From the NCBI RefSeq assembly GCF_026000775.1, contig NZ_AP026830.1, forward strand, positions 2,069,056-2,133,055: DNA of 64,000 nt, in the 5' to 3' direction. The position numbers and the translations under genes were made by a program. Shown in pieces: positions 14,583 through 32,093 of the stretch. Positions within the stretch are counted from its first letter, which is position 1; every line of letters starts with the position of its first letter. The stretch comes from Vulcanisaeta souniana JCM 11219. GTDB lineage: Archaea; Thermoproteota; Thermoprotei; Thermoproteales; Thermocladiaceae. The notes under the pieces were generated by a model. The model had not been told where the DNA came from. It made no database searches and worked only from the letters and a program-made list of their open reading frames with translations.

Positions 14583-15141
14583 TCTAAGGAGGGTCATCAT
14601 AGTATATGCAATTGAATTACTGGTACTTACGGTACTATCAATAATTGGTTTCTACATAGGTCCTCTATTCGTAAACGAATCTATGATCACATCGCTAGAA
14701 AACGAACTAAGGGGCGCCACAGGACTAGGACCGAATTATATATTCCTCCATAACCTCGTAATAGATACCCTAATGGCAATTCCGGTGGTTGGTCCATTCT
14801 TCTTCGTATTCACCCTTGCAACCACCGGGTTCGTATTGGGCGTTTTCGTTTCATATGCGCTCAATTCACCAATAGGTCTTGTACTATCATTACTTGTAAC
14901 AATGTTTTTTCCGCATGGTATAATCGAGCTCTTCGCCTATGCTTTCTCCACATCCGGTTCATTACTATTCACAGGTGGAATCATTAATACCATACGAAGA
15001 AGAGGGTCGGTGAATAGGGATGGGGTTATTGCCTTCATTATTTATTACGTAATTTCAGTGATCCTCCTCTATATTGCTGCAAATGTTGAATATTTCGAAA
15101 TAACAGCACTGAAGGGGATAATAAGTGGCATGTTTAGTTAG
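14572..15141 (+). CDS. Stage II sporulation protein M (DUF95)-like membrane protein
   Basis: About 189 residues with five hydrophobic helices. The centre has VLGVFVSYAL followed by FFPHGIIELFAYAFS, the conserved P-H-G-x-x-E motif of the SpoIIM/DUF95 family. Archaeal members are common and have no known function. ATG at 14572 is preferred; a TTG at 14566 is in frame. Its stop overlaps the end of the convergent secreted-protein gene by 4 bases. Confidence 0.75.
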   Translation: MRFDLRRVIIVYAIELLVLTVLSIIGFYIGPLFVNESMITSLENELRGATGLGPNYIFLHNLVIDTLMAIPVVGPFFFVFTLATTGFVLGVFVSYALNSPIGLVLSLLVTMFFPHGIIELFAYAFSTSGSLLFTGGIINTIRRRGSVNRDGVIAFIIYYVISVILLYIAANVEYFEITALKGIISGMFS

Positions 15142-16034
15142 CCGTTCAGGTTTTGATACATGAAACTCTGTGTCATTAGGTTTTGTACAAATACTGGTAA
15201 TTGAATGTTATTGGTAGTATCGTCATAAGCCCCACTCACTGAGTTATAACCTAGCATGAAGAGTATCGGCAGGTTTGGTAGGTTGGAGGGTACTTGGTAA
15301 GTTAGCGGTGTTGGTGTTAGGAATGGTTGTACGTAGTATCCATTGATAACAGAGACAATCATTGCCTGATACGCATTGCTGGAAACGTACGGTTCGTACT
15401 CACCCACGCATTCTGAGGCATTCACGTTAATACCCAACTCATTAAGCATTTCCTGTATTGTGGATATACTTGTTAGATTGGCTACATTGGTCGTATTGGC
15501 ACCGATGAATGAACCAACTTTACTAAGGAATAGTAGTGCGTTGTCCATATTTGTTGAATTATGGTACAGGCAATAGGCCACTGAGGCCACATTTGCCTCA
15601 GCCAATACCAATGGTGATGAAGAACCAGTATAATTGAAGGAGAGTATGTTAAACGCTATTTCGTACTGAACTAATCCCTCTTCTGAGGTACTGAGTATAT
15701 AGTTGGTATTGATTGCGGAGAAGTTTGTAGCTGGTGGCATAACAGGGTTATACAGGATCAGAACCTTAATTGGTGCTGTGTTTGATCCGTAAACCAGACT
15801 ATAATTCCTGAAGACATTGTATATTCTTGATGCGCTAAGTAGTTGGAAGTATGGCGGCCACGCAATAACACTAGCCCCACTAGATGTACCAAGCGGGTAT
15901 ACTATTATTGGTGTTCCTGTGTGTAGTTTTGACGGTGGTGCAATGACCCTTGCTAGTATGAAGTACGTTAACACCGCAGCCAGCACCAGCACCAGTGCAA
16001 GTATTGCAATGCTTATTGCCTTGTTAATGTTCAT
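15138..16034 (-). CDS. Hypothetical exported or membrane-anchored protein
   Basis: A 298-residue protein with one N-terminal membrane helix (ISIAILALVLVLAAVLTYFI) and a long outside region rich in Asn, Ser and Thr with several N-glycosylation sequons. A middle segment VLILYNPVMPPATNF is where a thioredoxin-fold protein would have its first strand and active site, but no Cys pair is present. A degenerate DsbA-like fold is a guess only. Confidence 0.5.
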   Translation of the reverse strand: MNINKAISIAILALVLVLAAVLTYFILARVIAPPSKLHTGTPIIVYPLGTSSGASVIAWPPYFQLLSASRIYNVFRNYSLVYGSNTAPIKVLILYNPVMPPATNFSAINTNYILSTSEEGLVQYEIAFNILSFNYTGSSSPLVLAEANVASVAYCLYHNSTNMDNALLFLSKVGSFIGANTTNVANLTSISTIQEMLNELGINVNASECVGEYEPYVSSNAYQAMIVSVINGYYVQPFLTPTPLTYQVPSNLPNLPILFMLGYNSVSGAYDDTTNNIQLPVFVQNLMTQSFMYQNLNG

Positions 16035-16128
16035 CTCGGAATCATAGGTGCCTGGATTTATTAAGGATTACTCACGCATTAATGACGTTATAGAAATGTT
16101 TAAATTATTGGTAACTCCACGGTATGCA

Positions 16129-16341
16129 ATGGCAATACCCAATGTTGAGAGACCAAAACCAGCACTTCATGGACCAACCGTGCCCGTATGCACTTCATGC
16201 GGTAAACCAATTAGACCATATGAAAGAGCCACGCACTTCCTATGCCCAAACTGTGGTAAGGCCGAGATATGGAGATGCGAGCACTGCAGGAGAATAGGAA
16301 ACCCATACAAATGCCCAGTCTGCGGCTTTGAGGGGCCCTAG
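16129..16341 (+). CDS. Zinc-ribbon protein (COG2888-like)
   Basis: A 70-residue protein from an ATG at 16129. It has four CxxC-type pairs: CTSC, CPNC, CEHC and CPVC, building two zinc knuckles around [18 protein letters not shown]. It matches small archaeal Zn-ribbon proteins (COG2888), thought to bind RNA. A TATA-like TGTTTAAATT near 16098 lies about 26 bases upstream, so the message is probably leaderless; this rules against the GTG at 16048. Confidence 0.8.
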
Positions 16342-16552: not shown

Positions 16553-16623
16553 TGGTGCGGCCGCCGGGATTCGAACTTACCCCGTACGCCCAATCGGACG
16601 CACGGCCGGGTTCTGCGGCTCGG
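16553..16623 (-). pseudogene. Displaced 3' part of tRNA-Gly with intron (left att site)
   Basis: Read on the minus strand, it starts with the last two anticodon bases, runs through the 3' half of the anticodon stem and variable loop, then the T-arm and acceptor strand, and ends with encoded CCA at 16553-16555. It lacks the 5' half, so it cannot make a tRNA. It matches 32091-32132 exactly except for the inserted bases 16577-16605. Confidence 0.9.
16577..16605 (-). other. 29-nt tRNA intron between T-stem positions 52 and 53
   Basis: An insertion that breaks the T-stem. On the minus strand CCGTGCG pairs with CGTACGG (7 base pairs, one G-U) around a 10-base loop, followed by GGTAA. This hairpin is what the inner helix of a bulge-helix-bulge splice site would look like. 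Thermoproteales are known for introns at such non-canonical places, removed by the splicing endonuclease and sealed by RtcB (a copy of which is at 51934-53388). Confidence 0.8.
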
Positions 16624-16687
16624 CAGAACACAATTTCGTAACTTCACGAGCGTGCATTAACGCGGTATTCTGTAACAAATGTATCCA

Positions 16688-17590
16688 TTAACGCAGTTCT
16701 TCAAGGTTGGGATTGAGTTGCGCATTACTGCTCTGTGAGTTCGTAACACAGGAATAGTCGTACTTATACAACATCTTATATAAACAGTCAAGTGTCCTCC
16801 TCATGAAACGCTTACTTTTAAAGACAAAATATTCTATGATCTCCTCCGTTAAATCACTAGTTATCCTAAGAGCCCACCAAAGCCACTTTAAATCAAGCTC
16901 TCCAAGCAATTTATCATCAATTGAGGATCTCCCAATCTCCTCAAGAGTATTCCTAACGAGTGAGTACACATAATTCTCCATGAACTCCCTCGAAAGCTTC
17001 CCCTTCTTTCTCAAGTGGTTAAAATAGTCAATTGTCCACTTATCATACTTACCCACTGCATCACCCATAAGCCACCATCCCCTATCCAAGTGGCTAATAA
17101 TATATTTTATAAGGCCCTCATTAATACTACTCGTGAGGAAGTAAGTACGAACAATCCCTAGGATCATCCTCATTATGTCGATAGTTATGCCAGACTCAAT
17201 AATGCTAATAATATCCTCTAAATAAGCAAGGGTACCAAACAAATCAGGGGGTAATTCTCCCCTAATTTTTAACTCATCAATTAAGTCCTTAAGCTTAGCC
17301 CTATATTCCCTATTCTCTAGGAGAGCCAGCAGGCCCGCAATGGTTGGCTCGCACTTTACCCTGTTCCTACCCTGCGAGCCCCTGCGGCACCTAATCCACT
17401 TTAAATCCTCACACAATTCCATCCTATCTAAGACCTTATCATACCTCGAAGTATTCACGCCGAGCTCCCTCCTAATGTCATCCAGCCTAATCGTTTCCCC
17501 CACGAGCCATGCCTTGAATATCCTATAAAGGACTTCGTAATGAAGTCTCCTTGTTTCTTCACTTAACTCATTGATGTTGCAATTAACCAT
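16688..17590 (-). CDS. Hypothetical protein at left end of the element
   Basis: About 300 residues. The N-terminal 70 look like a winged-helix domain (YRIFKAWLVGETIRLDDI, then LGVNTSRYDKVLDRMELC), and the rest is helical and charged. It may be a DNA-binding regulator of the element; no family is recognised. ATG at 17590 is chosen because the TATA box AATATATAAAA lies about 30-40 bases upstream; ATG at 17656 would lie before it. It is divergent from 17745 and shares an operator-like region. Confidence 0.5.
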   Translation of the reverse strand: MVNCNINELSEETRRLHYEVLYRIFKAWLVGETIRLDDIRRELGVNTSRYDKVLDRMELCEDLKWIRCRRGSQGRNRVKCEPTIAGLLALLENREYRAKLKDLIDELKIRGELPPDLFGTLAYLEDIISIIESGITIDIMRMILGIVRTYFLTSSINEGLIKYIISHLDRGWWLMGDAVGKYDKWTIDYFNHLRKKGKLSREFMENYVYSLVRNTLEEIGRSSIDDKLLGELDLKWLWWALRITSDLTEEIIEYFVFKSKRFMRRTLDCLYKMLYKYDYSCVTNSQSSNAQLNPNLEELR

Positions 17591-17644
17591 GCAAAAACCC
17601 CAACTGTAGCAAATAAAGCAGAGTTTTATATATTTTTCTGCAAC

Positions 17645-17692
17645 TATCTCTTTCATGAGATATTACATTTACAGAAATCTTTTGTAGAGATA
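17645..17692. promoter_or_regulatory. Operator-like inverted repeat in a divergent promoter
   Basis: TATCTC at 17645 and GAGATA at 17657 form a perfect 6-base inverted repeat with a 6-base spacer. A third half site GAGATA is at 17687. They sit between the TATA boxes of the divergent genes 16688-17590 (minus, TATA near 17625) and 17745 (plus, TATA near 17705). A repressor binding here could control both directions. Confidence 0.5.
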
Positions 17693-17744
17693 AACAAACA
17701 AGAATATATATACCTCTGAGAAAACAGCGTTAATGTGAAGCTGA

Positions 17745-18083
17745 ATGTGGGGTCAAAATGAAATTAAGGCCTTAGGCAAAGGAAGAGTTGGGAAGCGAGG
17801 AGCGCAGTATGTCCTGTATTTTGATAAGTATACAACTGAGCTTCTAAGGCCGTTTATTGGTAAGAAGGTTATCGTGTACATAATGATGAATAACAACGTG
17901 CCATATAGCGAGGGGATAAGCGTTGAGGGTAGACTCTCGTACGAAAGATCGTTTAGGCCACCGCGTGTCGCGGTTTTCTTGCCGAAGGCTTTGAACCCAA
18001 CATTGATGACGCTGTACGATAGGGAATTGATCGTTATGATCACTGTACGGGGTGAAGATTATGGCAAAGAAAAAGCGTGGTGA
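17745..18083 (+). CDS. Hypothetical protein, first gene of the replication block
   Basis: A 112-residue protein, basic, beta-rich by appearance (RGAQYVLYFDKYTTELL, GKKVIVYIMM). It has no motif I know. It starts the plus-strand run that continues with the 49-aa ORF and the helicase, overlapping the next start by 23 bases. A TATA-like AATATATATACC lies at about 17703. Confidence 0.45.
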   Translation: MWGQNEIKALGKGRVGKRGAQYVLYFDKYTTELLRPFIGKKVIVYIMMNNNVPYSEGISVEGRLSYERSFRPPRVAVFLPKALNPTLMTLYDRELIVMITVRGEDYGKEKAW

Positions 18084-18210
18084 GGGACGAACGAAACTTA
18101 CCATTGAGGAATTATTGGAGTACGAAAAAAGGAGGGTCACGTGTGTTGCTACGGGTCATTGTGTCCACCCAATGCTTGACGTTGTACACATCATTCCGGG
18201 TGATCCCTGA
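18061..18210 (+). CDS. Small hypothetical protein (49 aa)
   Basis: An ATG at 18061 opens 49 codons, starting with a basic patch (MAKKKRGEGRTKLTIEELLE) and ending with two Cys and several His residues (TCVATGHCVHPMLDVVH). The stop overlaps the helicase start (ATG 18210). Overlaps on both sides argue it is translated. It may fold around a metal through the C-x-H-like residues. Confidence 0.5.
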   Translation: MAKKKRGEGRTKLTIEELLEYEKRRVTCVATGHCVHPMLDVVHIIPGDP

Positions 18211-20372
18211 TGGAAACTAGAGTTTGTGAATTTAAGGTTAGTATTAAGGATATCGTGTTCATTATTAAGCGTAAAAAGTATGGTTGGTTCCTGACTGTTG
18301 ATGGTGACAATGAATTTGCGTTAACGTTTAGGCGGGCTCGTGACGTCATAAGTAATAAACTACTTCAAAGGATACAGACCTACCTGAGGGATAGGGGTGT
18401 CGAGGCTTCAACTGAGGAGATCCTCGACAGTTTCGAGAGTCAGTTTGTGGATAAGGTGCTGTTGAGGAGAAGGCCAGTGCTTGTGCAGGCCGATGTTGAC
18501 TTCGTGAAATTGCCACTATTTTACTCAACGAAGTCTGGTCTGGCCTTTGCATTGACGTACACTGCTTACAATGAGGATGACGAGATAACGTATAGGGGAA
18601 AGGTGCTGGTTAGTGATGGTGGTAACGTAACTGATTATGACCTAGCAGAGCTCGTTAAGGGCACGGTGATTAATGGCTACTTCGTCAAGGTTATTAGCCC
18701 GTACTTCGAGCCTGGTGATGAGTCGATAGACACTATTGAGTATGACGAGAAGACGTCCCAGAAGATACTCGAGTTGTTATCACTTTCGTCGGAGTCGATT
18801 GTTAGGTACGAGGATGTGATGAGGTGGTTAAACGAGATAAGCCTGAGTGGGGTTGATGCGTTGGAGTGGCTTAGGGCTGTGATCAATGCCATTGCAGAGA
18901 CTGTAAGGAAATACGTGTGGAGTAACATTAAGTATAGGGACATTATAGCACTACTCCCTGTCCTGGGCATTATCGCACCTGTTGTGGATTACATCATCAG
19001 GGTTATCTTCTCCTCAAACCTACCTGGCTCGGGGAAGTCATATCACATATCGCTGATTTCGGCATTTATCCCATACACGTTTTTCCTTGAGGAAGCAACC
19101 CCAGCATCGGTCTCGAGGCTCCTCAGTGTTGCCCTGAACATCGCGATTGATGAGCCCAAGATAAATGAGGATTTGGTCAGGACGTTGATTGCATCGTTTA
19201 GGAAGGACGCTGTGAGGGTGATTGTCGATACGTCGAAGTCATCGATAATGAGCATACCACTCTCGGGCATCATCCAAATACCCGAGTTGGGCAATGCACT
19301 TGATGAGTACTCAATATCGAGCGCATTGAGGACCAGGTCACTTGTGATTTACGTCACGAGGGACAGGAGAATCGTCTATGTCAAGGACCCATACAAGGAC
19401 ATTAAGGAACGCGAGGTTGTTAAGTTCACAATCAATAATAAGGAATACTCACTCAGGGTTAGGGAGTTGTACCCACTCCTCGTGGCATTGTTCCTACTCA
19501 CAGCGAGGAGACTTAGGGAGTTGTATGACGAGATTAATAATGAGTTATCGGCACTGGCCAGGGAAGGTAAGTTAACATTCGACGGCAGGACTGCCCAGGC
19601 TTATTCTCCGTTACTCGTCATTGCCAGGGTACTCAGTGAGCCATACTTCTCAAGTGTTTGGAAGTTCCTGGAGAACATGGGCAGTGGGTTAACACTGCCT
19701 GCCCTGGACCTACTCAAAGAGGTTGGCGAGTACGTACTGACCAAGCCAGGTGATTACGATGATTACGGTTACGTGTTTAGGGATGGTGATTACCCAATTA
19801 TCCTCATGAGGCCATTAGGCCTGATACGCGCTGCATTAATCATGAAGTATGGCGAGGTGCCTCAGTACGTGATTCGTGAGAGGGTTGAGGAGGGCGAGAA
19901 TGCTGTGCTGAGGGACATTGAGAGGTGGATCAGGACAAATCTACCAGAGGAGTTCTCGTCACCACGCAAACTAGGCGAGTTCCTGAGGAGGACACCAATA
20001 CTCAGTGACCTCTTTATTGACGCAAAGGAGAAGGACAGTGCACGTGTGGTTGGTCACCTAATCATAACGAGGGAGTTCAGTAAAATCATTGATTACCTGC
20101 AAGTTGGGGAGACAAGCGAGGCCGAGAGGCTCGTGCAGGAAGTAAGGAGTAGGGTGTGTACCGAGTTAAAGGAATTGATTAATGAGGGTAAGGTATTACT
20201 GAACTGCAGTGAGTTAGAGAGGGGGTCTTTCTCCGGGGAGAATCGTGAAGTACTAACGAGTAGTACTCACGAAAGTACTGGCGATTCCACGGTTACGAAA
20301 GCCACGAGTGAGGGGGAAAGCCCGTCAGTACTTCCAACAGTACTTCTAGTACCCCCAACAGTACTACCGTAG
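18210..20372 (+). CDS. P-loop helicase-like replication protein (SF3/AAA+ type)
   Basis: A 720-residue protein. Residues 1-250 are an unrecognised N-terminal region. A Walker A loop NLPGSGKSY lies near residue 271, a Walker B-like ALNIAIDEP near 310, a sensor-like segment near 345 and a possible arginine finger in SSALRTRSLVIYV near 385. This order fits a hexameric replicative helicase of the SF3/AAA+ kind. Its C-terminal tail is Ser/Thr-rich and ends abruptly at 20372. A longer tail continues in the -1 frame (20312-20533). It heads a block with primase and polymerase genes. Confidence 0.6.
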   Translation: METRVCEFKVSIKDIVFIIKRKKYGWFLTVDGDNEFALTFRRARDVISNKLLQRIQTYLRDRGVEASTEEILDSFESQFVDKVLLRRRPVLVQADVDFVKLPLFYSTKSGLAFALTYTAYNEDDEITYRGKVLVSDGGNVTDYDLAELVKGTVINGYFVKVISPYFEPGDESIDTIEYDEKTSQKILELLSLSSESIVRYEDVMRWLNEISLSGVDALEWLRAVINAIAETVRKYVWSNIKYRDIIALLPVLGIIAPVVDYIIRVIFSSNLPGSGKSYHISLISAFIPYTFFLEEATPASVSRLLSVALNIAIDEPKINEDLVRTLIASFRKDAVRVIVDTSKSSIMSIPLSGIIQIPELGNALDEYSISSALRTRSLVIYVTRDRRIVYVKDPYKDIKEREVVKFTINNKEYSLRVRELYPLLVALFLLTARRLRELYDEINNELSALAREGKLTFDGRTAQAYSPLLVIARVLSEPYFSSVWKFLENMGSGLTLPALDLLKEVGEYVLTKPGDYDDYGYVFRDGDYPIILMRPLGLIRAALIMKYGEVPQYVIRERVEEGENAVLRDIERWIRTNLPEEFSSPRKLGEFLRRTPILSDLFIDAKEKDSARVVGHLIITREFSKIIDYLQVGETSEAERLVQEVRSRVCTELKELINEGKVLLNCSELERGSFSGENREVLTSSTHESTGDSTVTKATSEGESPSVLPTVLLVPPTVLP

Positions 20373-20389
20373 TACAAACTGTCAGTACT
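20249..20389 (+). repeat. AGTACT repeat cluster, possible replication origin
   Basis: Seven copies of the palindrome AGTACT lie at 20249, 20262, 20274, 20327, 20339, 20360 and 20384, with AGTAC also at 20348 and 20371. Apart from one gap the spacing is 9 to 13 bases, about one helical turn, so copies face the same side of the DNA. They fall at the end of the helicase gene, just before the primase gene. Iteron-like origins of plasmids often sit here. The repeats also encode a Ser-Thr tract in one frame, which is the other explanation. Confidence 0.6.
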
Positions 20390-20533
20390 TCACGAGACTC
20401 CCCAGAGGGAGAGACCCCCCTAGAGTTTAGAGTAGTGCTTACACGTGATGAGCTAATAAGGAGACTTAGGGAGTTGGCTTCACGTTCAGTTTCCCAGGAA
20501 TTGAACGGTGACGAGAAGAGGGGCGGCCAGTGA
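20312..20533 (+). other. Possible C-terminal continuation of the helicase in the -1 frame
   Basis: This frame opens at 20312 just inside the helicase gene and runs to TGA at 20531-20533, touching the primase start. It begins with a Ser/Thr-rich stretch and ends with a convincing helical tail, LEFRVVLTRDELIRRLREL. It has no ATG; a GTG near 20432 is the only usable start. The helicase's own tail is Ser/Thr-rich up to 20312, so the two look like one protein joined by a -1 shift near the run GGGGGAAAG at 20311-20320. Confidence 0.45.
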
Positions 20534-21090
20534 TGCTGGACTTAGTGACTCAATTTCTTGATTCACTGACCTGGGGATATAGAAGGTACAATTACTGGGC
20601 TGGCAATACCTGGCTCACTGGTAAACTCCCAATCAATAGGGATGACGCGATTAAGCTAGTCAGGGGTGGTGAGGTCATTGGTGTTTGGCAGTGCTTTGGT
20701 TATGACGTTAGTGAGCCATGCATACTGAGGGACATACTGGTCTTCGAGGCTGACGTGAGTGAGTGCGAGGGTAGGGAGAGCCTGGATTGCGTGCTGAATT
20801 GGGCTAGGTCAAACATGGATGTACTAAGGCCCGTGCTTAGTTACGGGCCCGTGCTTTATTGGAATGGTGGTAAGTCCCTGTACATAATCATCTACTTCAC
20901 TAACCCAGTACCCGCTGATTATGTTCTTAGGGACGAGTGGGTTGAATTCTCGAAGGCAATTGGGTTCGACATGCAGGAAACCCAGGCTAGGCACGCGATT
21001 CGTGTCCTGGGCACGAGGCACCACAGGACTAATAAAATAGGTACACTACTCGACACCAACCTAAAACCAATTAATACCTTTAATAATTAA
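20533..21090 (+). CDS. Primase-polymerase-like protein (archaeo-eukaryotic primase type)
   Basis: About 185 residues. ILVFEADVSECEG near residue 70 fits the metal-binding strand (acid-x-Asp). LYWNGGKSLYIIIYF near residue 110 fits the Gly-rich motif. QARHAIRVLGTRHHRTNKIG near residue 155 fits the R/H motif III region. Together they suggest a short primase-polymerase. ATG at 20533 overlaps the preceding stop (TGATG). The next frame encodes a PriL-like domain, so the natural product may be one PriS-PriL fusion split by a frame change. Confidence 0.5.
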   Translation: MLDLVTQFLDSLTWGYRRYNYWAGNTWLTGKLPINRDDAIKLVRGGEVIGVWQCFGYDVSEPCILRDILVFEADVSECEGRESLDCVLNWARSNMDVLRPVLSYGPVLYWNGGKSLYIIIYFTNPVPADYVLRDEWVEFSKAIGFDMQETQARHAIRVLGTRHHRTNKIGTLLDTNLKPINTFNN

Positions 21091-21214
21091 TAGAGTAAAC
21101 CCATTCCTATTCCTGGCGCCGAAGAGGCAGGAGAGGCAGGTTGGCATTGCTAGGGTTCCCAGGGACAGCAATGAGGGTGATAAAGGCAGGCAACTTCCTG
21201 CCTGGGTTCAGCAG

Positions 21215-21490
21215 TTGATTAATTACCTGAGGGAGACTGGTGAGTTGTGTCACTACGGTAGGCTCGCGATTGCCGAGTGGATGCTCTTCAAGGGGTACAG
21301 CGAGGACGAGATCCTCGAGGTGTTTAGTCACGCGCACAATTTCAAGCCAGACAGGACTAGGTACCACATTAGGTACGCGTACGAGCACTGGATTGCCCAG
21401 GGCAGGAAGCTCATCTCCTGCAAAACCGTGAGGGAGAAATGCAATGGCCACAACATCCCAGAGTTGAGGTGTTGGGGTGACCCACAGTGA
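21215..21490 (+). CDS. PriL C-terminal (Fe-S) domain-like protein
   Basis: The translation has CHYGRLAIAEWMLFKGYSED, then FKPDRTRYHIRYAYEH and LISCKTVREKC. These follow the C-terminal domain of the primase large subunit (R-x-x-x-A-x-x-L, T-R-Y-x-I, S-C-K-T). Four Cys (in ELCHY, ISCKT, EKCNG and RCWG) could hold a 4Fe-4S cluster. The only standard start in frame is TTG at 21215, but PriL similarity (LPAWVQQLINYL) begins just before it, and the frame is open back to 21065. The true start or a fusion point is therefore upstream. It ends TGATG into the polymerase. Confidence 0.6.
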   Translation: MINYLRETGELCHYGRLAIAEWMLFKGYSEDEILEVFSHAHNFKPDRTRYHIRYAYEHWIAQGRKLISCKTVREKCNGHNIPELRCWGDPQ

Positions 21491-21642
21491 TGTTTTACGT
21501 GACCGAGAACATATTCGTGAGGGATGGTGAAGTCACGAGGTTCTTCCCTTACATGTACGTCATTGGCGAGGAGGCCCAGGGTGTTGGCGATCGACGTCGA
21601 GGTCAGGGGTGGCAAACCAATCTATGGCTATACGCTTGGTGA
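21490..21642 (+). other. Out-of-frame N-terminus of the DNA polymerase
   Basis: An ATG at 21490, sharing a base with the preceding stop (TGATG), opens a frame beginning MFYVTENIFVRDGEVTRFF. That is how many archaeal family B polymerases begin. After about 30 residues it turns into a meaningless stretch and stops at 21642. The polymerase continues from RPRVLAIDVEV in the +1 frame. The change should lie around 21555-21580. Confidence 0.6.
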
Positions 21643-23389
21643 TGACGTGAACATAACTAGTGATGTTAGGGATATTGCGGGTGTTGACTTCGACATTGCC
21701 GTGACTTACAATGGTTGGTCATTCGACGTTAAGTACCTACCCATGTACAGGAATAGTAGGTACGCACTGTACACGGATGACGGTGTTAAACCGTTGATGG
21801 ACCTGTACGTGTTTGTTGAGTCAGGGTTCAAGTCGAGCCTGGGCATCCAGGAAGAGGCTAGTAAGTTGTACGACGTAGCGATACAACTAGGCATACACAG
21901 GTCACTGGGTATTGGCGAGGCGGAGTTACTGAGGCTTAAGTCCCTGCAGTCGAGGGTTGACCAACTCACCACGAGTGAGTTAACAACGTACCTAGGCCTC
22001 GACGTATTAATAACGCATCAACTAGCCATGAGGTGGCTACCAGTGCTCCAGGCATTGGGCGCAATCACTGGCAGTAACCCAATGGTGATTAACCAAGTAG
22101 CCGAATCAGCAAGCCCTGGGCACCTGGCTGAGGCTCTCATTCACAAATACTTACAATTCAACGGAATTATACTCCAGGATAGGAGACGCGAAATGGATTA
22201 CGAGGCTGGCGATAAGACTAGGGCTAGGAGCTACGGATTGTTCAGGAATGTTGGTGAGTACGACTTCAGTGCTATGTACCCGAGCCTCTACACGCAGGAT
22301 AATGTTGATCCGATCAACATTAGGGAATGCCAGAGTGGATTCCCAGTGAGGACTACGAAGGGTACAAAGAGGGTTTGCTTCGAGCCTGGTGGCCTCGTTC
22401 ACAAAGTCCTATCCAGCCTGTACAGGGCTAGGAAGGTGACTAAGGCTTTGAAGGCTACCTACGGCGATGCCCCTGACCAGGCTGTTAAGATTTTGGTTAA
22501 TTCGGCATACGGTGTGTTTGGTAAGAGTGGTATTGGCATGGTCAATGAGTGGGTGGCTGCCTACATAGCCCAGAAGACCCAGGCAATATTTGATGACCTG
22601 TGGCAGAGGTACCAGCCGATTTACGGAGACACAGACTCGATGTATATCCAACTCGATGGTAGGGACGCAGACAAACTGCTCATGGAGATCAATGACTACC
22701 TGCACAGGGCCTATGGACCACTCATGGAAATGAAGCTCGAGGAGGTCTGGGACGTTGTGTATATACCACGTAGCAAGGCAGGTGGTGCTGCGGAGAAGAC
22801 CTACATCAAGATGAGAGGCGATGAGTTGGTCATTAAGGGTGGCGCGTTGAAGCCACGTGACCTGCCCAGGGGCTTGAGGTACGGGGCATACAGGGACTGG
22901 GTCAGGGCATTACTACTCGGTGACGCAAGGCTCGACGATTTGATTAGCAAGTTCATTAGTGGTGCAAGCCTTGAGGACCTCTTCATTGAGTACAGCATTA
23001 GCTTTAGGGACCTGCTCTATACTCACGAGGGCTCGCAAATAAGGACGATCGATAGGAGTAGGTTCCCCGCACTTGCATACTTGGCAGTGGCAAGCGGTAG
23101 GGAGGCCCTCATTGACCTGAGGGCTAGGACAATCAACGCAAAACCAATCGACCTGGACGCCTTCGTTGACGTGCTCTACCTACCAATTGAGACGCAGGGC
23201 GAGACTAAGGCATTCGCCTTCCTAATCAACAACGAGCCAGTCATCGCAAGGGTGAGCATTCAATTCGACCAGAAGCAGGGCAAGATACTGACTAAGGTCG
23301 CGAACCTAGTCAGGGCAAGCAGGGAGGACATTGAGAAGTTGAGCATAAAGGCAATAAGGGAGTCTGGACTATTTAGTCACATTGCTTAA
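21524..23389 (+). CDS. Family B DNA polymerase
   Basis: A 621-residue polymerase. The 3'-5' exonuclease motifs are LAIDVEV near residue 22, YNGWSFDVKYL near 65 and TTYLGLDV near 155. The polymerase motifs are A, YDFSAMYPSLY near 247; B, KILVNSAYGVFG near 320; and C, YGDTDSMYI near 367. Spacing between A and B is ordinary, with no sign of the insertions of protein-primed enzymes. It is shorter than cellular PolB (about 780) and should copy the element's DNA. The ATG at 21524 is out of the frame of the real N-terminus at 21490, so the annotated start is probably artificial. Confidence 0.9.
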   Translation: MVKSRGSSLTCTSLARRPRVLAIDVEVRGGKPIYGYTLGDDVNITSDVRDIAGVDFDIAVTYNGWSFDVKYLPMYRNSRYALYTDDGVKPLMDLYVFVESGFKSSLGIQEEASKLYDVAIQLGIHRSLGIGEAELLRLKSLQSRVDQLTTSELTTYLGLDVLITHQLAMRWLPVLQALGAITGSNPMVINQVAESASPGHLAEALIHKYLQFNGIILQDRRREMDYEAGDKTRARSYGLFRNVGEYDFSAMYPSLYTQDNVDPINIRECQSGFPVRTTKGTKRVCFEPGGLVHKVLSSLYRARKVTKALKATYGDAPDQAVKILVNSAYGVFGKSGIGMVNEWVAAYIAQKTQAIFDDLWQRYQPIYGDTDSMYIQLDGRDADKLLMEINDYLHRAYGPLMEMKLEEVWDVVYIPRSKAGGAAEKTYIKMRGDELVIKGGALKPRDLPRGLRYGAYRDWVRALLLGDARLDDLISKFISGASLEDLFIEYSISFRDLLYTHEGSQIRTIDRSRFPALAYLAVASGREALIDLRARTINAKPIDLDAFVDVLYLPIETQGETKAFAFLINNEPVIARVSIQFDQKQGKILTKVANLVRASREDIEKLSIKAIRESGLFSHIA

Positions 23390-23413
23390 CCGTATGATTA
23401 CCTCCATGGGGTT

Positions 23414-23450
23414 ATCTAGCTAGCTGGCTATTTGGATATCTAGCTGGCTA
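23414..23450. repeat. Short direct repeat (ATCTAGCTGGCTA type)
   Basis: ATCTAGCTAGCTGGCTA at 23414-23430 and ATCTAGCTGGCTA at 23438-23450 lie between the convergent polymerase and 162-aa genes. The reverse form AGCCAGCTA recurs at 26737. Function is unknown; a terminator or protein-binding site is possible. Confidence 0.4.
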
Positions 23451-23510
23451 AATGGTGCCGATGTTTTTGGTGGTGTTGGTTAGGGGTTTGTGCCGACTTG
23501 ATTAATGTCG

Positions 23511-23999
23511 TCATTGCTTATCTAGCCTGTCTATGTAGACGTGAACGTTGCCAAACTCATCCCTCGTAACCCTAACCCTAACACCCTCATTAACCATTAT
23601 GGGCCTCCTCGGCAACTCACTCATCCACTCTATAACGTACCTCATGAACTTGCCCAGCCTCTCCCTAGGTATTGCATGTAGTACCGTGAATCCATGCCAT
23701 ATGAATCCACCGCCAATTACCCTACCATTATCTTGAATGTACCCAAGCTCCTCATCACTCAACTCAACCCAATCATTTGCCTCTGGATCGTAAATGTACA
23801 CCCTCAGGTCCGGAATACCACTCGTATCCACTATAGTCTTCGTCCTAACAACACCATACCTACCAGCCCCGGCAATGCCGGGGCTTGGTTTGTTGGTTGT
23901 TGCGTCACTCTTCATGACTATAATTGTTTTCCTAACTTGTTTTAAGTAATTATTGCCTGTTTGGTTTGCGGTGACTTGCTTCGTCGCTAGCTTAGGCAT
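23511..23999 (-). CDS. Hypothetical protein
   Basis: A 162-residue ORF. The first 40 residues are low-complexity and basic; the conserved-looking part starts near RYGVVRTKTIVDTSGIPDLR and ends RVRVTRDEFGNVHVYIDRL. It looks like a soluble alpha/beta protein. An ATG at residue 29 (MKSDATTNKP) may be the true start. No family is recognised. It is convergent with the polymerase. Confidence 0.4.
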   Translation of the reverse strand: MPKLATKQVTANQTGNNYLKQVRKTIIVMKSDATTNKPSPGIAGAGRYGVVRTKTIVDTSGIPDLRVYIYDPEANDWVELSDEELGYIQDNGRVIGGGFIWHGFTVLHAIPRERLGKFMRYVIEWMSELPRRPIMVNEGVRVRVTRDEFGNVHVYIDRLDKQ

Positions 24000-24064
24000 A
24001 GTTATTTGATAACCCTCGTGGCGTCAGGCTTATAAGTAATTGAATTGTATTTAATACAACCCCA

Positions 24065-24283
24065 ATGGGTTGGGAGTCGCCGAGGAGGTGGCTCGCCCTC
24101 GCCACCACCCTAACAATACTAACACCACTCTTTGTACCACTGTTATTCTTCGCCATCACCGCATGGATAGCCTACTACAGGACACGAAGGCTGGCTAGGG
24201 CATGCAAAGACCCTGAGGAGGCAAGGCGAATGGGCATCCTACGGCTTTGCATGAGGTACTACTACAAGGATCGCGACCCATGA
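24065..24283 (+). CDS. Small membrane protein (72 aa)
   Basis: One long hydrophobic stretch (LALATTLTILTPLFVPLLFF and following) that could be one or two helices, then a basic, Arg-rich tail with two Cys. It is 4 bases before the start of the next membrane protein, so the two form an operon. Function unknown. Confidence 0.55.
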   Translation: MGWESPRRWLALATTLTILTPLFVPLLFFAITAWIAYYRTRRLARACKDPEEARRMGILRLCMRYYYKDRDP

Positions 24284-24287
24284 GACT

Positions 24288-25544
24288 GTGGGTGGTGGCG
24301 AGGACCTCAAAACCCAACGTGAAAGCCTAATTAGTCAGTTTATTAAATTGAAAGTGACCAGTATGAGGCTTGAAAGCCTAGGCAGGGTAATGGGAGTAAT
24401 AACCATGGCACTGGTAATAGCCACGCTACTGATTGCCAACCACGCAATGGCAATGCTCTACTGGCGCTTTGGCGGTGGTGTACCACACGTGGTGACCAGC
24501 AGCGGCAGTACGATAGGCACTGGCACCATAGTCTACCAGCAAAACCCAGGAGGCTATGTAGGACACGGCACAGGCTCCTACCAGTCGAGCACCACCACGG
24601 TCACGATACCAGTGAATACGCAGGTGGTCACAAAGACCGAGACCACGACGTATGTCGTGTCAACGACAATAACCACCACCTACTACCCAATCATCACATA
24701 CACAATCCAATACCTCATGACATGGATGACGCCAAAGGGCATGTGCCAGAATGGGCTTTGTGGCTTAAACCCAAGCCTACTAATACCAACAATGCCCTTC
24801 ATGGGACATGGAAGCAATGGCAATGAATGGGGTCACTACATCTACATCCCAGCGGTCACGGCAGTCTTCAACTACACGGGCTTTGGATTACAAGTGACTA
24901 TGAAGCTAGTCCCACAAATCACTGGCTGGACAAGCAAGACCAGCACTAGCACTAGCACTAGGACATTCACCACCACAAGCCAGAGTGTACAGCAAATCAC
25001 GCAGTACATACGACAGACAGTCACGGGCATCCAGCCGACAGTCAACGCCCAATTCATAAGCTACAATGGCGGAGGCAGTGGCACGAATACTCGTCCTAAT
25101 CCAGGCACTGTGAAGTACCCAGTGTACAACACCGCACTGAGCCTAACCACAAGCGCCACAAAGGCACTACTCTTCACGGGCGCCACAATACTCGACGCTG
25201 ATGGCGACTTGATGAGCATCGTTGGCAATGCCCTCACCAGCGCCGGTAACTGGCTGAAGGGCACTGGCAACCCAATCGGGCAGGCGATTGGCAGTGCCCT
25301 CGCCTGGGCTGGGAGTGGACTCTCATGGCTAGGTAATACACTAGCCACAGACGCGAAGCTCATTGGCAATTACGCCCAGGCATACGGCACGACAGCCAAT
25401 TGGCAGTCGGTGCAGGTACAGCCTGGGCAGGGCGTGAACATTGGCTCCACGTACAGTATTACCTACAATGGTGCTGGTAACCCACTATTTAGCGGTCCAT
25501 TCAATGTCTACCCAGCGCCATCGCCAGTGAACCTGGGGTGGTGA
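24288..25544 (+). CDS. Thr/Ser-rich membrane-anchored surface protein of the element
   Basis: A 418-residue protein. A short cytoplasmic start is followed by one membrane helix (VMGVITMALVIATLLIANHA). The outside region has Thr/Ser-rich tracts (TTTVTIPVNTQVVTKTETTT and STSTSTRTFTTTSQS), two aromatic-rich patches and a Gly/Ala-rich segment with amphipathic helices (GNALTSAGNWLKGTGNPIG). The composition suggests a glycosylated surface or virion-like protein. GTG at 24288 or ATG at 24363 could be the start. It does not match a known capsid family. Confidence 0.5.
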   Translation: MGGGEDLKTQRESLISQFIKLKVTSMRLESLGRVMGVITMALVIATLLIANHAMAMLYWRFGGGVPHVVTSSGSTIGTGTIVYQQNPGGYVGHGTGSYQSSTTTVTIPVNTQVVTKTETTTYVVSTTITTTYYPIITYTIQYLMTWMTPKGMCQNGLCGLNPSLLIPTMPFMGHGSNGNEWGHYIYIPAVTAVFNYTGFGLQVTMKLVPQITGWTSKTSTSTSTRTFTTTSQSVQQITQYIRQTVTGIQPTVNAQFISYNGGGSGTNTRPNPGTVKYPVYNTALSLTTSATKALLFTGATILDADGDLMSIVGNALTSAGNWLKGTGNPIGQAIGSALAWAGSGLSWLGNTLATDAKLIGNYAQAYGTTANWQSVQVQPGQGVNIGSTYSITYNGAGNPLFSGPFNVYPAPSPVNLGW

Positions 25545-25564
25545 GGGTGTAAGCCCCTCAAAAC

Positions 25565-25625
25565 CAAGATTCAAAATTCTTTTTCATTCTTCTTTCTCCC
25601 TTCTCCCTCCCCATCTTACTTTTTG
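25565..25625. terminator. Pyrimidine-rich terminator between convergent genes
   Basis: About 60 bases almost wholly C and T on the plus strand, with several T runs (TTCTTTTTC, CTTACTTTTTG). It lies just after the stop of the 418-aa gene. T-rich tracts of this kind end transcription in Crenarchaeota. Confidence 0.5.
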
Positions 25626-25769
25626 ATCCTCATAATCCCCAGGCTGTGAATGGGATGTGGTGGACCGGCTGACGCGTGATGATACACCGGCACCGAGGGG
25701 GCCAGCCCACCCCGCCAAGCCAATTCACCACACACTGGCTTTTAATCCTTACTCTGGAGAAACACGCCC

Positions 25770-26648
25770 TCACGGTGTGAAGCCTGGCGCCGGCACTGGT
25801 GGTGTTTGGTTAATGGGCTGTGGCCATGAGACCACAGCAATGCCGTTGCTCCAATAGAGCCATGCGTTACTAACGTACTCCGCGGTTCCGCCACCCACCC
25901 CAATGCTTGGGGCTGGGAGCCACGTGGTTCCATTCCAGTAATACAGGGCTAGGACCACATTGGCACTGGTGAGGTTTATGGAGTATTGGTTTGCGCCTGG
26001 ACCGCCAATCACTATGTTGGTCATTGGCACCCCATTATTACCAGTGATTATGGTCACATTACCCACTGGGTAACTGTAGTACCAGTTAACATTGACGCCG
26101 TCTAGGCTGTAGCCGAAGTATGCAGTGCCACTCTTGATGGCGATCACGAGCCAGGCGCAGGTGGCTCCGTAGTACGGGATGCCGTAGGCGCTTGCCAGGT
26201 TTGTGTTGCAGACAATCCCATTACCCTCTGTGGTGCACGTGCCAGGCACCCAAACATTCACACCGAAGCCTGTGAAGCCCGAGGGTTGCATAGCCCACAC
26301 GTCCTGTATCCAGTAGCCATTACTCAATTGGGCATTGAGTTGTATTGAGTAGGATTGTGGTTGTATATTGTTTATGCAGTAGTAGCCGGCTAGGGCTGTG
26401 GTTGGTGGTCCAGTGTAGCCTAGGCCCACTGGGTTGTTTGTGATTTCCTCTAGGCCACTCGTGGGTTGTTGTGGTGGTTGGGATTGTGGCTGTGGGGTTT
26501 GGTTTTGTTGGCCTTGGATTTCGTGGATTAGGTTCACTATCACGGGCCAGTCCGTGACTAGGACTATTACCACTGACCCAATTATGAATATGAGGAATAG
26601 GGTGAGGATTGCCAAGCCAATTACCTTGAGCACCCTCATCCACACCAC
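25770..26648 (-). CDS. Exported thermopsin-like protein
   Basis: A 292-residue protein with an N-terminal membrane helix (VIGLAILTLFLIFIIGSVVI), a Gln/Pro-rich linker and a beta-rich outside domain. SNGYWIQDVWAMQ and later NVNWYYSYP, with VTIITGNNG, resemble the A5 thermopsin/concanavalin-like fold seen in thermoacidophile proteases and virus proteins. I do not see the acidic residues of a working thermopsin, so binding instead of proteolysis is possible. It resembles 28745-29566. Confidence 0.45.
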   Translation of the reverse strand: MVWMRVLKVIGLAILTLFLIFIIGSVVIVLVTDWPVIVNLIHEIQGQQNQTPQPQSQPPQQPTSGLEEITNNPVGLGYTGPPTTALAGYYCINNIQPQSYSIQLNAQLSNGYWIQDVWAMQPSGFTGFGVNVWVPGTCTTEGNGIVCNTNLASAYGIPYYGATCAWLVIAIKSGTAYFGYSLDGVNVNWYYSYPVGNVTIITGNNGVPMTNIVIGGPGANQYSINLTSANVVLALYYWNGTTWLPAPSIGVGGGTAEYVSNAWLYWSNGIAVVSWPQPINQTPPVPAPGFTP

Positions 26649-26742
26649 CCAAGCCTCCAGTTAATACCCAGGGCTTTAAATAACTATCAAGCCCCAAGCC
26701 CGAAGGCCAGCCAGTCAGCCAGCCTACCAACCACCCAGCCAG

Positions 26743-26802
26743 CTAACGCAATAAGCACGGGGCATGCCTAAGGTACCACTGCCTAGGCTCCTCATGCCCT
26801 GG
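26743..26802 (-). pseudogene. Relic of a second integrase C-terminus
   Basis: On the minus strand 19 codons plus a stop read PGHEEPRQWYLRHAPCLLR. The intact integrase at 30716 ends PRHEELRQWYLRHAPCLLC. Sixteen of nineteen residues agree, and the DNA is similar as well. Upstream, only a weak trace of the catalytic Tyr region remains. A former integrase gene therefore ended here. Confidence 0.75.
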
Positions 26803-26859
26803 TATTGATAAAACTTCTTGGGCTTGGTGGGTGGGTTTTAAATCGGCTCATTATGGATT

Positions 26860-27147
26860 ATGGCGATGCCCATTTGGGTTTACCACCTCGATGAGTTTAG
26901 GTTGGTCAGTGATTATGACTTCAATTACACGATTAATGAGTTAATAGGCATCGCAGTAAGCAAGGCCGAGGAGCTAGGCATGAAGCCAGTCGCGGTATGC
27001 CGCCTAGAGATTGGTGATGACACAGTGATAGAGGTGAGGGGTGAGGACGGGCAAGCAATGAAGTTGATTAAAGCAAAGGACTCAATTGAAGCATTGAGGA
27101 GGTTCTACGAGAACGAAAGGGGGTTGACCTGTTTCTCAGTTAGTTAA
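26860..27147 (+). CDS. Hypothetical protein (95 aa)
   Basis: A compact, acidic soluble protein beginning MAMPIWVYHLDEFRLVSDYD. It has an alternating helix-strand pattern and ends near two Cys. It stands alone after the integrase relic. No family is recognised. ATG at 26860 or 26866 could be the start. Confidence 0.45.
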   Translation: MAMPIWVYHLDEFRLVSDYDFNYTINELIGIAVSKAEELGMKPVAVCRLEIGDDTVIEVRGEDGQAMKLIKAKDSIEALRRFYENERGLTCFSVS

Positions 27148-27884
27148 GTTGCGTAGTGCCTTTTCGTGAGATTCTGTGATAACACCATTTTTTGTTAATG
27201 TCCTGCCGGTCTCTTACCAGACCTCAGTATGAATTCTTTGCCCGTGTTTGGGTCTCTGTAGTGGTTGAATGTGCCGCCACAATAACATCAACATCCTTAT
27301 TAACGCCGTAGTAATCCCTAACGATATCGCTCATGCGCCTAACAAATTCGGAGGCAAGTACCTTAAGGACCCCCTTCCGGCAGCCGCCCCTTCAACCGCG
27401 GGGCTTATCCGAAAGTTTCTGCGTGCATTACGTAAACGGGTTAAAAGACCACAAAATCGAGAATGATACAAGCGTAGAATCGAGAATGAGGCCCACGCTC
27501 GTGCCATTAAATGGCTGGTTTCCTAATTATGCCTCTACAGTTTCCGATAAACCGTAAAGTTCATATTAAATGCTATTAAGTAAACCCATTGGGCAAACCC
27601 TCCTCTAGTAACTCCCTCCTGGACTCCTCAACCCCGTCATCAATAATTACCCTAGCAGCCATAATGCTTAGTTCATGGTCTTAAACGAGACCTTTACTAG
27701 ATTCGTAATACATTAGTCTAATGTGTGGCTTTTATGTTAATATCCTTAATCGTTAGATATCACGTCAAGCCTAAGAAATGCATATGGATGAATATTCATA
27801 AACCGTAAAACTCCGCTCAATTCCGCTCGAATCACTTTCTCCGAACACCCAAAGTAAAAAAATCCCGTGAAATAAAAGATTCTG
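27148..27884. other. Decayed region without an intact gene
   Basis: No complete gene is visible. On the minus strand, between about 27370 and 27200, broken frames read like protein: VLASEFVRRMSDIVRDYYG in one and FNHYRDPNTGKEFILRSGK in another, as if one gene had a frame break near 27285. A 28-codon minus-strand ORF at about 27595-27680 (MAARVIIDDGVEESRRELL) looks like the start of a lost gene. None can be named. Confidence 0.4.
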
Positions 27885-28739
27885 ATGGTTATGGGTCCAA
27901 GAATAAAGTGGTTGGTGGTGGCTATGGTGGTTGTTGCTGCAGTTGCCTCCCTGCTCATCAAGGCCTTATTCTTCCCCGCACATCCGAACTTTGTCGCTAC
28001 CATGCCCACCTATTATGGCCGAGTCGCCTGTAATGATGGTTATGACTTAGTTATTCCAGGCAATACGACAATAGTCCTCATTTACCACGTCCACGGCAAC
28101 CTAACAATCAACTACGCATCCCTCGAAATCGACTTCCCACTGAGTATCATAAACAAGACACTCTCAGCATTATCCAGCGTCAACCCCGGCAATGCCATGT
28201 GGTTTGGAGTTTACCTAAATGGTAGGTTGATTGCCGTTGGTAACTACACAAACCCCGTGGATGCCTTACTCTACGCCGTAAGTCAGCCATACCCATATGT
28301 CTACTACAACACGACAGTGAATAGGTACGAGACGATTCCCAATAGGACAATGACCTTCTGGCAATTCATGAAGGCCGAGAACATCTCGGTATTCCACACG
28401 GCAATCATTGCCAGATTACCCACGGCGATTAACGTTAGACCTGGCGATACCATAGCCCTCATACTCTACTCCGCAGTCCCTTACGCATTGCCGGTCTGCA
28501 GCATTACGAGCGAGGCCGAGGAGGTGCAGTTAATGGCTAGGTATGGCTGGGTTGGTAAGCCTGGCACGCCATTAACGGCCCAACAATTGATTGAGGCTGG
28601 TCAGTACATAACCGAGGTACCCACGATATACCTAATGAGCAAGCCACCAACTGCCGGAAGCCAGGAGGCAATAAGCATAAGCGGCGTAAAGCCATACATG
28701 AACAACACAGCACCAATATACGCATTAGCATACTGGTGA
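27885..28739 (+). CDS. Exported membrane-anchored protein
   Basis: A 284-residue protein with an N-terminal helix (WLVVAMVVVAAVASLLIKAL) and an outside beta-rich domain with many N-glycosylation sequons and two pairs of widely spaced Cys. GDTIALILYSAVPY near residue 190 looks like an Ig-like strand. No family is recognised. It overlaps the long-frame start of the next gene, so the two secreted proteins are likely co-expressed. Confidence 0.5.
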   Translation: MVMGPRIKWLVVAMVVVAAVASLLIKALFFPAHPNFVATMPTYYGRVACNDGYDLVIPGNTTIVLIYHVHGNLTINYASLEIDFPLSIINKTLSALSSVNPGNAMWFGVYLNGRLIAVGNYTNPVDALLYAVSQPYPYVYYNTTVNRYETIPNRTMTFWQFMKAENISVFHTAIIARLPTAINVRPGDTIALILYSAVPYALPVCSITSEAEEVQLMARYGWVGKPGTPLTAQQLIEAGQYITEVPTIYLMSKPPTAGSQEAISISGVKPYMNNTAPIYALAYW

Positions 28740-28744
28740 TAAGC

Positions 28745-29566
28745 ATGATGGCGAGAAAATCAAAGATAATCACTATACTCACTCTAACGTTTATAATGAT
28801 GCTAACGATGGTAGTAACGTCCACTAAAGTAGCCATGGCATGCACATCACCAGTTGGTGGATGTAATTATGAGTTTACGACAAATGGTGTGACGCCAAGC
28901 TATGTCGGTGTTCAATCAGAAATAACCAACACAATGACTGTGGAGTCCTACACCTCGTCATCAACGAATTGGCTATCGTTACAGTATAACCCAGACGTGA
29001 GTCTCGTTCTTCAGAGCAATCCATTTGGAGGAAATTGGATCCAAGCAGTAATTGCGTACTATGTGGTAACGAATCCGCCAGGTGGGCCGCTTAGTACTGT
29101 ATATGCATATTTTGTATTACAAGTGTGGAATTTATGGCTTGGATTAGATGCAACCCTTAATTCAGCATGCAGTGTTAATTATGTTATTAACAACGGTAAT
29201 CCCATACCGTGGCCCCTTATCCCCGGAGGCTGGCAAGCCATTACGTACTACGTTGGTAGTAATGGTGAAGTATCTTCGGTTTATGAAGGATTATACGTAC
29301 CTGGTTATGGATCATGGGGCATTTCTATTTCTATCTCATCATCTTGTACAAATCATTGGTTTAGGTCTAATGTTGTTTGGGCTGGCGCTAATGGTGGTTC
29401 TGTGACTTTTTACTCTGGTGGTTCTGGCGTGTTTTATTACTGCTCTAATGTGGATCTATACCAAGGACCGTTGGCTGATAACACGGCTGAGAGCTCAAAC
29501 GTGATCTACACCCAAATGTACAACCAAGGAACAACATGCAGCATGTACCAGGACTTCCAAACATAG
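28745..29566 (+). CDS. Secreted thermopsin-like protein
   Basis: About 273 residues with an N-terminal signal peptide (IITILTLTFIMMLTMVVTS). The mature part is beta-rich with aromatic patterns GGNWIQAVIAYYVV and ends NTAESSNVIYTQMYNQGTT. The T-A-E-S-S-N-x-x-Y phrase is common near the end of thermopsin-family (A5) domains. Six Cys could form disulfides outside the cell. It resembles 25770-26648 in plan. Confidence 0.5.
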   Translation: MMARKSKIITILTLTFIMMLTMVVTSTKVAMACTSPVGGCNYEFTTNGVTPSYVGVQSEITNTMTVESYTSSSTNWLSLQYNPDVSLVLQSNPFGGNWIQAVIAYYVVTNPPGGPLSTVYAYFVLQVWNLWLGLDATLNSACSVNYVINNGNPIPWPLIPGGWQAITYYVGSNGEVSSVYEGLYVPGYGSWGISISISSSCTNHWFRSNVVWAGANGGSVTFYSGGSGVFYYCSNVDLYQGPLADNTAESSNVIYTQMYNQGTTCSMYQDFQT

Positions 29567-30118: not shown

Positions 30119-30277
30119 ATGCCTGTTACTGAGCCGATTAGGGTTAGTAGGGATACTAAGGAGGAGTTGAGGAAGTTGAAGATACACCCCAGGGAGACTT
30201 ACGACGACGTGATTAGGAGGTTGATTGAGGTTTACGGAATCCAAACAGGGGCAGGGTACCGGTCGTTAAGACGCTGA
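30119..30277 (+). CDS. VapB-type antitoxin-like small protein
   Basis: 52 codons from ATG 30119. EPIRVSRDTKEELRKLK and ETYDDVIRRLIEVYG match the small archaeal antitoxin-like family in which a strand is followed by two helices (S-x-x-x-x-x-x-L-x-x-L, then E-T-Y-D-D-V-I). The last residues run into the adjoining TnpB fragment, so its end may be altered. No toxin gene follows. Confidence 0.55.
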   Translation: MPVTEPIRVSRDTKEELRKLKIHPRETYDDVIRRLIEVYGIQTGAGYRSLRR

Positions 30278-30444: not shown

Positions 30445-30528
30445 AACGCCGTCTCACGCACTGACTGCATTAACTAAATTCTGCAAGTTGATGCTTAAAT
30501 ATTAATTAATCATTATCAGTACCATATT

Positions 30529-30618: not shown

Positions 30619-30715
30619 TTAAGTACTCATCAATACAAAACTCCTTAACAGGAAAGCCATTAAGAACAAGACACAGCAAGACCAATAAAACAAATAACCT
30701 CACTAACAAAGCATA

Positions 30716-31972: not shown

Positions 31973-32009
31973 ATCGTAAAGCTCGCAATCAACAATATCT
32001 GTAATAGGT

Positions 32010-32041: not shown

Positions 32042-32093
32042 AAGAAGTGCATCGAATTGTAACACGATGACGGAGGAATTGAATGATTTTTGG

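What the first reader, a model, noticed from the sequence alone, without database searches (positions are those of the whole stretch)
16553..16623. Displaced tRNA-Gly half keeps an intron that the rebuilt gene lacks
The left att copy equals the 3' part of tRNA-Gly(UCC) except for a 29-nt insert with a 7-base-pair stem, as in a bulge-helix-bulge intron, at T-stem position 52/53. The working tRNA at the other end has no intron. The simplest reading is that the chromosome had an intron and the element brought an intron-free 3' half, so integration removed a tRNA intron. This bears on the idea that tRNA introns shield genes from integrases.
Basis: partly seen in the sequence, partly recalled or inferred. 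Interest (0 to 1): 0.85.

Follow-up and report, generated by a model that had tools for sequence, protein, structure and literature searches.

The report
Intron-bearing displaced tRNA half at integration scar
A plasmid-like element in a heat-loving archaeon inserted into a glycine tRNA gene and swapped its 3' half; the discarded half still carries an intron that the working gene now lacks, so the insertion probably erased a tRNA intron, although no empty-site copy that proves it is available.

Summary
The left copy (16553-16626, minus) is not "UCC plus an insert". It is letter-for-letter the 3' half, from anticodon-loop base C32, of the genome's intact intron-bearing tRNA-Gly(GCC) 0.5 Mb away: G34 and the same 29-nt 52/53 intron. 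The rebuilt gene at the other end is tRNA-Gly(UCC) without intron. The integrase is pNOB8-type; its family sits beside 20 rebuilt tRNA genes in Vulcanisaeta genomes. All these anticodon arms are uninterrupted, and displaced halves in this genus and attPs of circular Sulfolobales plasmids start at the anticodon loop. The crossover is therefore at the loop, and the intron 18 nt further 3' lies on old chromosomal DNA: the element brought an intron-free half, and an intron-bearing one was pushed aside. But the nearest empty-site relative (Vulcanisaeta sp. UBA163) has a different intron (37/38) and none at 52/53. The 52/53 intron must have reached this locus from the GCC gene, most likely before integration (0.6), possibly by later conversion of the dead half (0.2). 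The intron did not shield the gene; only anticodon-arm introns could. Intron loss at this gene also occurs without integration in two relatives. Mirror image of the Caldiarchaeum intron-gain model.

The parts
16553..16626 (-). Displaced tRNA-Gly 3' half (attR-like end), from C32 to CCA, GCC-type (G34 at 16624), with intron
   Evidence: sequence; identical over 74 nt to the intact tRNA-Gly(GCC) gene of the same genome
16577..16605 (-). 29-nt BHB-type tRNA intron at position 52/53 (T-stem)
   Evidence: comparison with intron-free tRNA-Gly and identical intron in tRNA-Gly(GCC); hairpin fold
16627..16633 (-). TTGTGTT, element's left core-type flank directly before the anticodon loop
   Evidence: similar TTGTGGT/TTGTGGC/ATGTGGT/TTGTC before C32 in four other displaced halves of the same integrase family
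32091..32169 (-). Rebuilt tRNA-Gly(UCC), intron-free; 5' part chromosomal, 3' part from the element
   Evidence: ARAGORN and Rfam; integrase adjacent on the same strand
32170..32204 (-). Upstream (promoter) region of the rebuilt gene, of GCC-gene type rather than UCC-gene type
   Evidence: 0.83 identity to GCC upstream regions of G002/G003/G008/G009, 0.66 to UCC upstream of the closest relative G001
30716..32143 (-). pNOB8-type tyrosine integrase (mechanical ORF; true start probably near 31996, as homologues begin around residue 44-50)
   Evidence: PF00589 and PF16795, PHROG 5127, 34-37% identity to integrases of pNOB8, pARN4, pAH1 and related plasmids
16627..32130 (.). Integrated element, about 15.5 kb, with PolB-like ORF 21524-23389 (+) and thermopsin-like ORF 25770-26648 (-)
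   Evidence: absent from the empty site G001:C44, where both flanks adjoin the tRNA; Pfam
15138..16341 (.). Left chromosomal flank (298-aa ORF on minus, 97-aa ORF on plus)
   Evidence: 88% identical DNA in G001:C44, where it adjoins tRNA-Gly(UCC)
32450..33889 (-). Right chromosomal flank ORF (479 aa)
   Evidence: 77% identical protein directly upstream of tRNA-Gly(UCC) in G001; also next to UCC in G002, G003, G008

Best explanation
A pNOB8-type integrative element recombined with tRNA-Gly(UCC) at the anticodon loop. Its attP carried an intron-free 3' half preceded by a GCC-type loop (G34). The host gene at that time carried a 29-nt intron at 52/53, previously copied from the paralogous tRNA-Gly(GCC) gene (conversion or intron transposition), and had already lost the 37/38 intron seen in relatives. 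Integration joined the host 5' half (with T34, so still UCC) to the element's intron-free 3' half, and left the intron-bearing 3' half with the element's G34 loop at the far end. Integration thus removed a tRNA intron. Shown: the copies, identities, empty site, integrase family and att boundaries. Inferred: that the intron reached the UCC locus before rather than after integration.
For: Displaced half is identical over 74 nt to tRNA-Gly(GCC) including intron and G34. In the empty site of the closest relative both flanks adjoin tRNA-Gly(UCC), and homology of the left flank runs up to the 3' end of the displaced half, so it lies where the old gene's 3' end was. The integrase is pNOB8-type; attPs of circular pNOB8-family plasmids are intron-free tRNA 3' halves starting at the anticodon loop. 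Displaced halves beside the same integrase family in Vulcanisaeta start at the loop after a similar TTGTG motif. In G003 a rebuilt tRNA-Trp has a displaced half with a Lys-type loop (CTCTTAA) and a Trp-type remainder, the same loop mismatch as G34 here. UCC/GCC exchange has precedents in the genus: G002 and G003 UCC share 35 nt of upstream sequence exactly with their own GCC gene, and UCC and GCC of G009 carry the same 16-nt 37/38 intron. Introns at 52/53 have spread over several tRNA genes of this genome, four of them nearly identical. The displaced half ends in CACCA like GCC, while UCC in G001, G004 and G006 ends in CACTA.
Against: No tRNA-Gly(UCC) found in the 12 genomes of the genus has an intron at 52/53, so the pre-integration state was never seen. 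None of the other displaced halves examined carries an intron. The upstream region of the rebuilt gene is GCC-like but diverged (0.74 to its own GCC gene), so the upstream conversion and the identical intron are not from one recent event. The tRNA-Gly(GCC) 3' half of the closest relative is a 55-base run of N, so that comparison is missing. No circular form or close copy of the element was found.
Confidence: 0.6

Rival explanations
1. The displaced half was intron-free when it was formed and was converted later by the intact tRNA-Gly(GCC) gene, which copied the intron into a non-functional fragment. A form of this: conversion between the ends of two elements, one at the GCC gene and one here.
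For: The displaced half is identical to the GCC gene over all 74 nt. The closest empty relative has no 52/53 intron in UCC. Conversion between these isoacceptor genes is documented in the genus.
Against: Only 21 and 24 nt of homology flank the insert in the fragment. The fragment is not a working gene. The time available is only that since a recent-looking integration (integrase and PolB ORFs open, no substitutions in the displaced half).
Confidence: 0.2
2. The crossover was in the last 24 identical bases, and the intron with G34 belongs to the element's attP, captured earlier from an intron-bearing tRNA-Gly(GCC). The host UCC gene never had the intron and integration removed nothing.
For: Would explain G34 and the intron in one stroke and needs no intron at the UCC locus. 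The 24 nt after the intron are identical in both copies.
Against: In this integrase family the tRNA homology of attP starts at the anticodon loop, which is only needed if the exchange is there. The six circular attPs read are intron-free. An intron at 52/53 would break the T-stem core that such a crossover would need. SSV1 integrase cuts at the anticodon loop edges (PMC8371274).
Confidence: 0.1
3. The two copies are not a cognate pair: a rearrangement between elements at the GCC and UCC genes, or an assembly error, put a GCC-derived end here.
For: Synteny breaks around this tRNA are common in the genus, and the integrase family occurs at many tRNA genes.
Against: The flank next to the displaced half is the original 3' flank of tRNA-Gly(UCC) in G001. 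Both copies are in direct orientation with the integrase next to the rebuilt gene. The genome is a single contig.
Confidence: 0.06

Closest known systems
Caldiarchaeum subterraneum tRNA-Thr(GGU) locus (Sugahara et al. 2012, PMC3293823)
   Same: pNOB8-like element at a tRNA gene, direct repeat of a tRNA piece, and an intron difference between the rebuilt gene and the fragment attributed to attP/attB recombination
   Different: There an intron-bearing attP is proposed to have added an intron; here an intron-free attP would have removed one. There the fragment is a 5' piece; here it is a 3' half.
pNOB8-type integrative plasmids of Sulfolobales (pNOB8, pARN4, pAH1, pSOG1, pYN01, pKEF9)
   Same: Integrase 34-37% identical over most of the length; attP is a tRNA 3' half starting at the anticodon loop just upstream of the integrase gene
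   Different: They carry 3' halves with other anticodon loops (Glu-type in most, my reading); the rest of this element (PolB-like ORF, thermopsin-like ORF) was not matched to them
[quoted passage not shown] 2010, cited in PMC4033280)
   Same: The same intron at the same position in different tRNA genes, as for the 52/53 introns of this genome
   Different: That describes gain; here one copy is stranded in an integration scar and is missing from the working gene
Integrated elements in intron-containing tRNA genes of Thaumarchaeota (PMC6563490)
   Same: 10 of 39 tRNA integrations are in intron-containing genes
   Different: The passages read there do not describe loss or exchange of the intron

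Membership tests
pNOB8-type integrative element | Tyrosine integrase related to that of pNOB8 | tested here: met
   tblastn 35.8% over 92% to pNOB8, E 2e-83, and 13 further Sulfolobales plasmids; PF00589/PF16795
pNOB8-type integrative element | Intact integrase gene next to the rebuilt tRNA on the same strand, not split by att | tested here: met
   one open ORF 30716-32143 minus, rebuilt tRNA 32091-32169 minus
pNOB8-type integrative element | attP is a tRNA 3' half starting in the anticodon loop | tested here: met
   displaced copy starts at C32; same in six circular plasmids and in other Vulcanisaeta displaced halves
pNOB8-type integrative element | Circular or conjugative form | not testable with these tools
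   no circular form found in viral contigs; no conjugation genes recognised in the ORFs scanned
Archaeal BHB tRNA intron | Insert at a known intron position with a bulge-helix-bulge possible | tested here: met
   29 nt at 52/53, hairpin fold, same intron in an otherwise complete tRNA-Gly(GCC)
Archaeal BHB tRNA intron | Cut by the splicing endonuclease | not testable with these tools
   needs RNA or enzyme assay
Split (trans-spliced) tRNA half | Separate 5' half gene and pairing leader | not tested
   no search for a partner half was made; a complete tRNA-Gly(GCC) gene exists elsewhere

The most novel reading that the evidence does not exclude
Integrative elements of the pNOB8 type act as erasers of tRNA introns: their intron-free attP halves replace intron-bearing host 3' halves, and introns resist only if they interrupt the anticodon arm where the integrase acts. 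This locus would be a case in which the erased intron is still visible in the scar.
Probability: 0.5. Interest if true: 0.7.

Novelty: new variant of a known kind. Interest (0 to 1): 0.52.

Why it matters
Introns and splits in archaeal tRNA genes have been proposed to keep integrases out, and an element has been proposed to bring an intron in. This locus points to the reverse traffic, loss of an intron by integration, and separates two classes of intron: those in the anticodon arm, which break the integrase site, and those further 3', which do not protect and are replaced. The scar makes this testable in strains with and without the element.

Tried and rejected
IMG/VR: no relative of the integrase, no intron-bearing or intron-free tRNA-Gly half matching the patterns. 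Phage records: only weak streptococcal phage integrases. A second PolB copy (86% identical protein) at 1.638 Mb of the same genome shares only the PolB region and a piece of integrase, with no tRNA-Gly ends. Idea that G002 and G003, with intron-free UCC, also hold an element: rejected, ordinary chromosomal genes follow (SixA-like, ribonucleotide reductase, reverse-gyrase-like by my reading), as in G008. General intron removal: tested weakly. Most target tRNAs are intron-free in element-free genomes too, and the other displaced halves have no intron, so a general trend is not shown.

Full report
What is there. The window lies at 2069056-2133055 of a single-contig genome of 2432148 bases. Two genomes of the same genus have the sizes I recall for V. 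distributa and V. moutnovskia, and its closest relative in the sets, G001, is on the same 23350-bp contig as the record named Vulcanisaeta sp. UBA163. The rebuilt tRNA-Gly(UCC) is at 32169-32091 minus. The left copy is at 16626-16553 minus: C32 at 16626, a 29-nt insert at 16605-16577 between positions 52 and 53, CCA end at 16553. The insert folds as a hairpin and its borders fit a bulge-helix-bulge by eye.

Base 34, just outside the given interval, is G in the left copy and T in the rebuilt gene. The left copy matches letter for letter, over 74 nt, the 3' half of an intact tRNA-Gly(GCC) gene at 1584491-1584599 of the same genome, with the same intron. V. moutnovskia-like G004 has this intron in tRNA-Gly(GCC) with one difference; seven other GCC genes in the genus have no intron.

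The empty site. In G001:C44 the left-flank gene (90% identical protein), tRNA-Gly(UCC) and the right-flank gene (77%) are neighbours. The left flank aligns up to the last bases before the tRNA end. So the target was tRNA-Gly(UCC), and the displaced half lies at the old 3' end. In G001 that gene has a 16-nt insert at 37/38, with inserts of similar kind at that place in G004, G005, G006, G008 and G009, and nothing at 52/53.

Where the strands were exchanged. The integrase is 34-37% identical to those of pNOB8, pARN4, pAH1 and other Sulfolobales plasmids. Six of those circular plasmids carry, upstream of the integrase gene, an intron-free tRNA 3' half starting at the anticodon loop. Within Vulcanisaeta the same integrase family, intact or in pieces, sits behind 20 rebuilt tRNA genes of 15 anticodons. 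The displaced halves with a clear border start at the loop after TTGTGGT, ATGTGGT, TTGTGGC or TTGTC (G000 Lys, G003 Lys, G003 Trp, G002 Arg), and TTGTGTT in the window. The G003 tRNA-Trp case has a Lys-type loop on a Trp-type remainder, so the loop in the displaced copy is the element's and the rest is the chromosome's. Published work places SSV1 integrase cuts at the edges of the anticodon loop (PMC8371274). By this pattern G34 in the window comes from the element, and the intron from the chromosome.

How the intron could have reached the UCC gene. Exchange between UCC and GCC genes is visible in the genus: in G002 and G003 the 35 nt upstream of UCC are identical to those of their own GCC gene, and the 37/38 intron is gone without any element; in G009 both genes carry the same 37/38 intron. 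In the window the upstream region is GCC-like too (0.83 to G002, G003, G008 and G009 GCC; 0.66 to G001 UCC), but it has diverged, so it is an older event than the intron. Introns at 52/53 have spread to several other tRNA genes of this genome, four of them nearly the same sequence. Order of events, inferred: loss of the 37/38 intron and upstream conversion; gain of the 52/53 intron from GCC; integration with an intron-free attP.

What remains open. The last step but one was not seen in any genome. Conversion of the dead half after integration explains the same sequence and cannot be excluded with one genome of the species. A crossover downstream of the intron is unlikely because of the att borders.

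Shielding. In this genome a script found 15 of 45 tRNA genes with an interrupted anticodon arm, and two further genes it passed look interrupted by eye, so 15-17. None of the 20 tRNA genes beside this integrase family is interrupted there; the chance of that at random is 0.0003 at 15 of 45, lower at 17. The cases are not independent, so this is a trend, not a test. tRNA-Arg(CCG) has an anticodon-loop intron in the window genome, while rebuilt Arg(CCG) genes in G002 and G003 have none. The 52/53 intron lies outside the core and gave no protection.

Verdict. Observation confirmed and corrected. Interpretation partly supported: intron removal by integration is the best reading at about 0.6, with the intron derived from the GCC paralogue. 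It is the mirror image of the intron-gain model of Sugahara et al. 2012 (PMC3293823).

Noticed in passing
L180 (G003:C2), rebuilt tRNA-Trp and displaced half in L237: The displaced half has a Lys(CTT)-type anticodon loop on a Trp-type 3' remainder; attP loops may record tRNAs used earlier by the element.
   Followed up: partly
G002:C14 / G003:C18 tRNA-Gly(UCC) (L134, L135) and their GCC genes (L151, L152): 35 nt of upstream sequence are identical between the UCC and GCC genes, and UCC has lost its 37/38 intron without any element: gene conversion between isoacceptor genes.
   Followed up: yes
G000:C1 1204400 and 1250858 (L173, L231): Another element of the same integrase family, about 46 kb between a rebuilt tRNA-Lys(TTT) and an intron-free displaced half.
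   Followed up: partly
window 31994-31996, minus: Where relatives start the integrase with ATG GTT GAT TGC, the window has ATT GTT GAT TGC: a non-standard start codon or a start mutation.
   Followed up: no
G001:C43 6538-6592 (L150): The 3' half of tRNA-Gly(GCC) in the closest relative is a run of 55 N, so its intron state is unknown.
   Followed up: yes
L292, L294, L295, L298 (G000): Four tRNA genes carry nearly the same T-stem intron at the same position, (T)CGCGGGTYAACCGCGGGGAA: intron transposition.
   Followed up: no
G000:C1 1637984-1639822: A second PolB-like ORF, 86% identical to the one in the element, in a different setting.
   Followed up: partly
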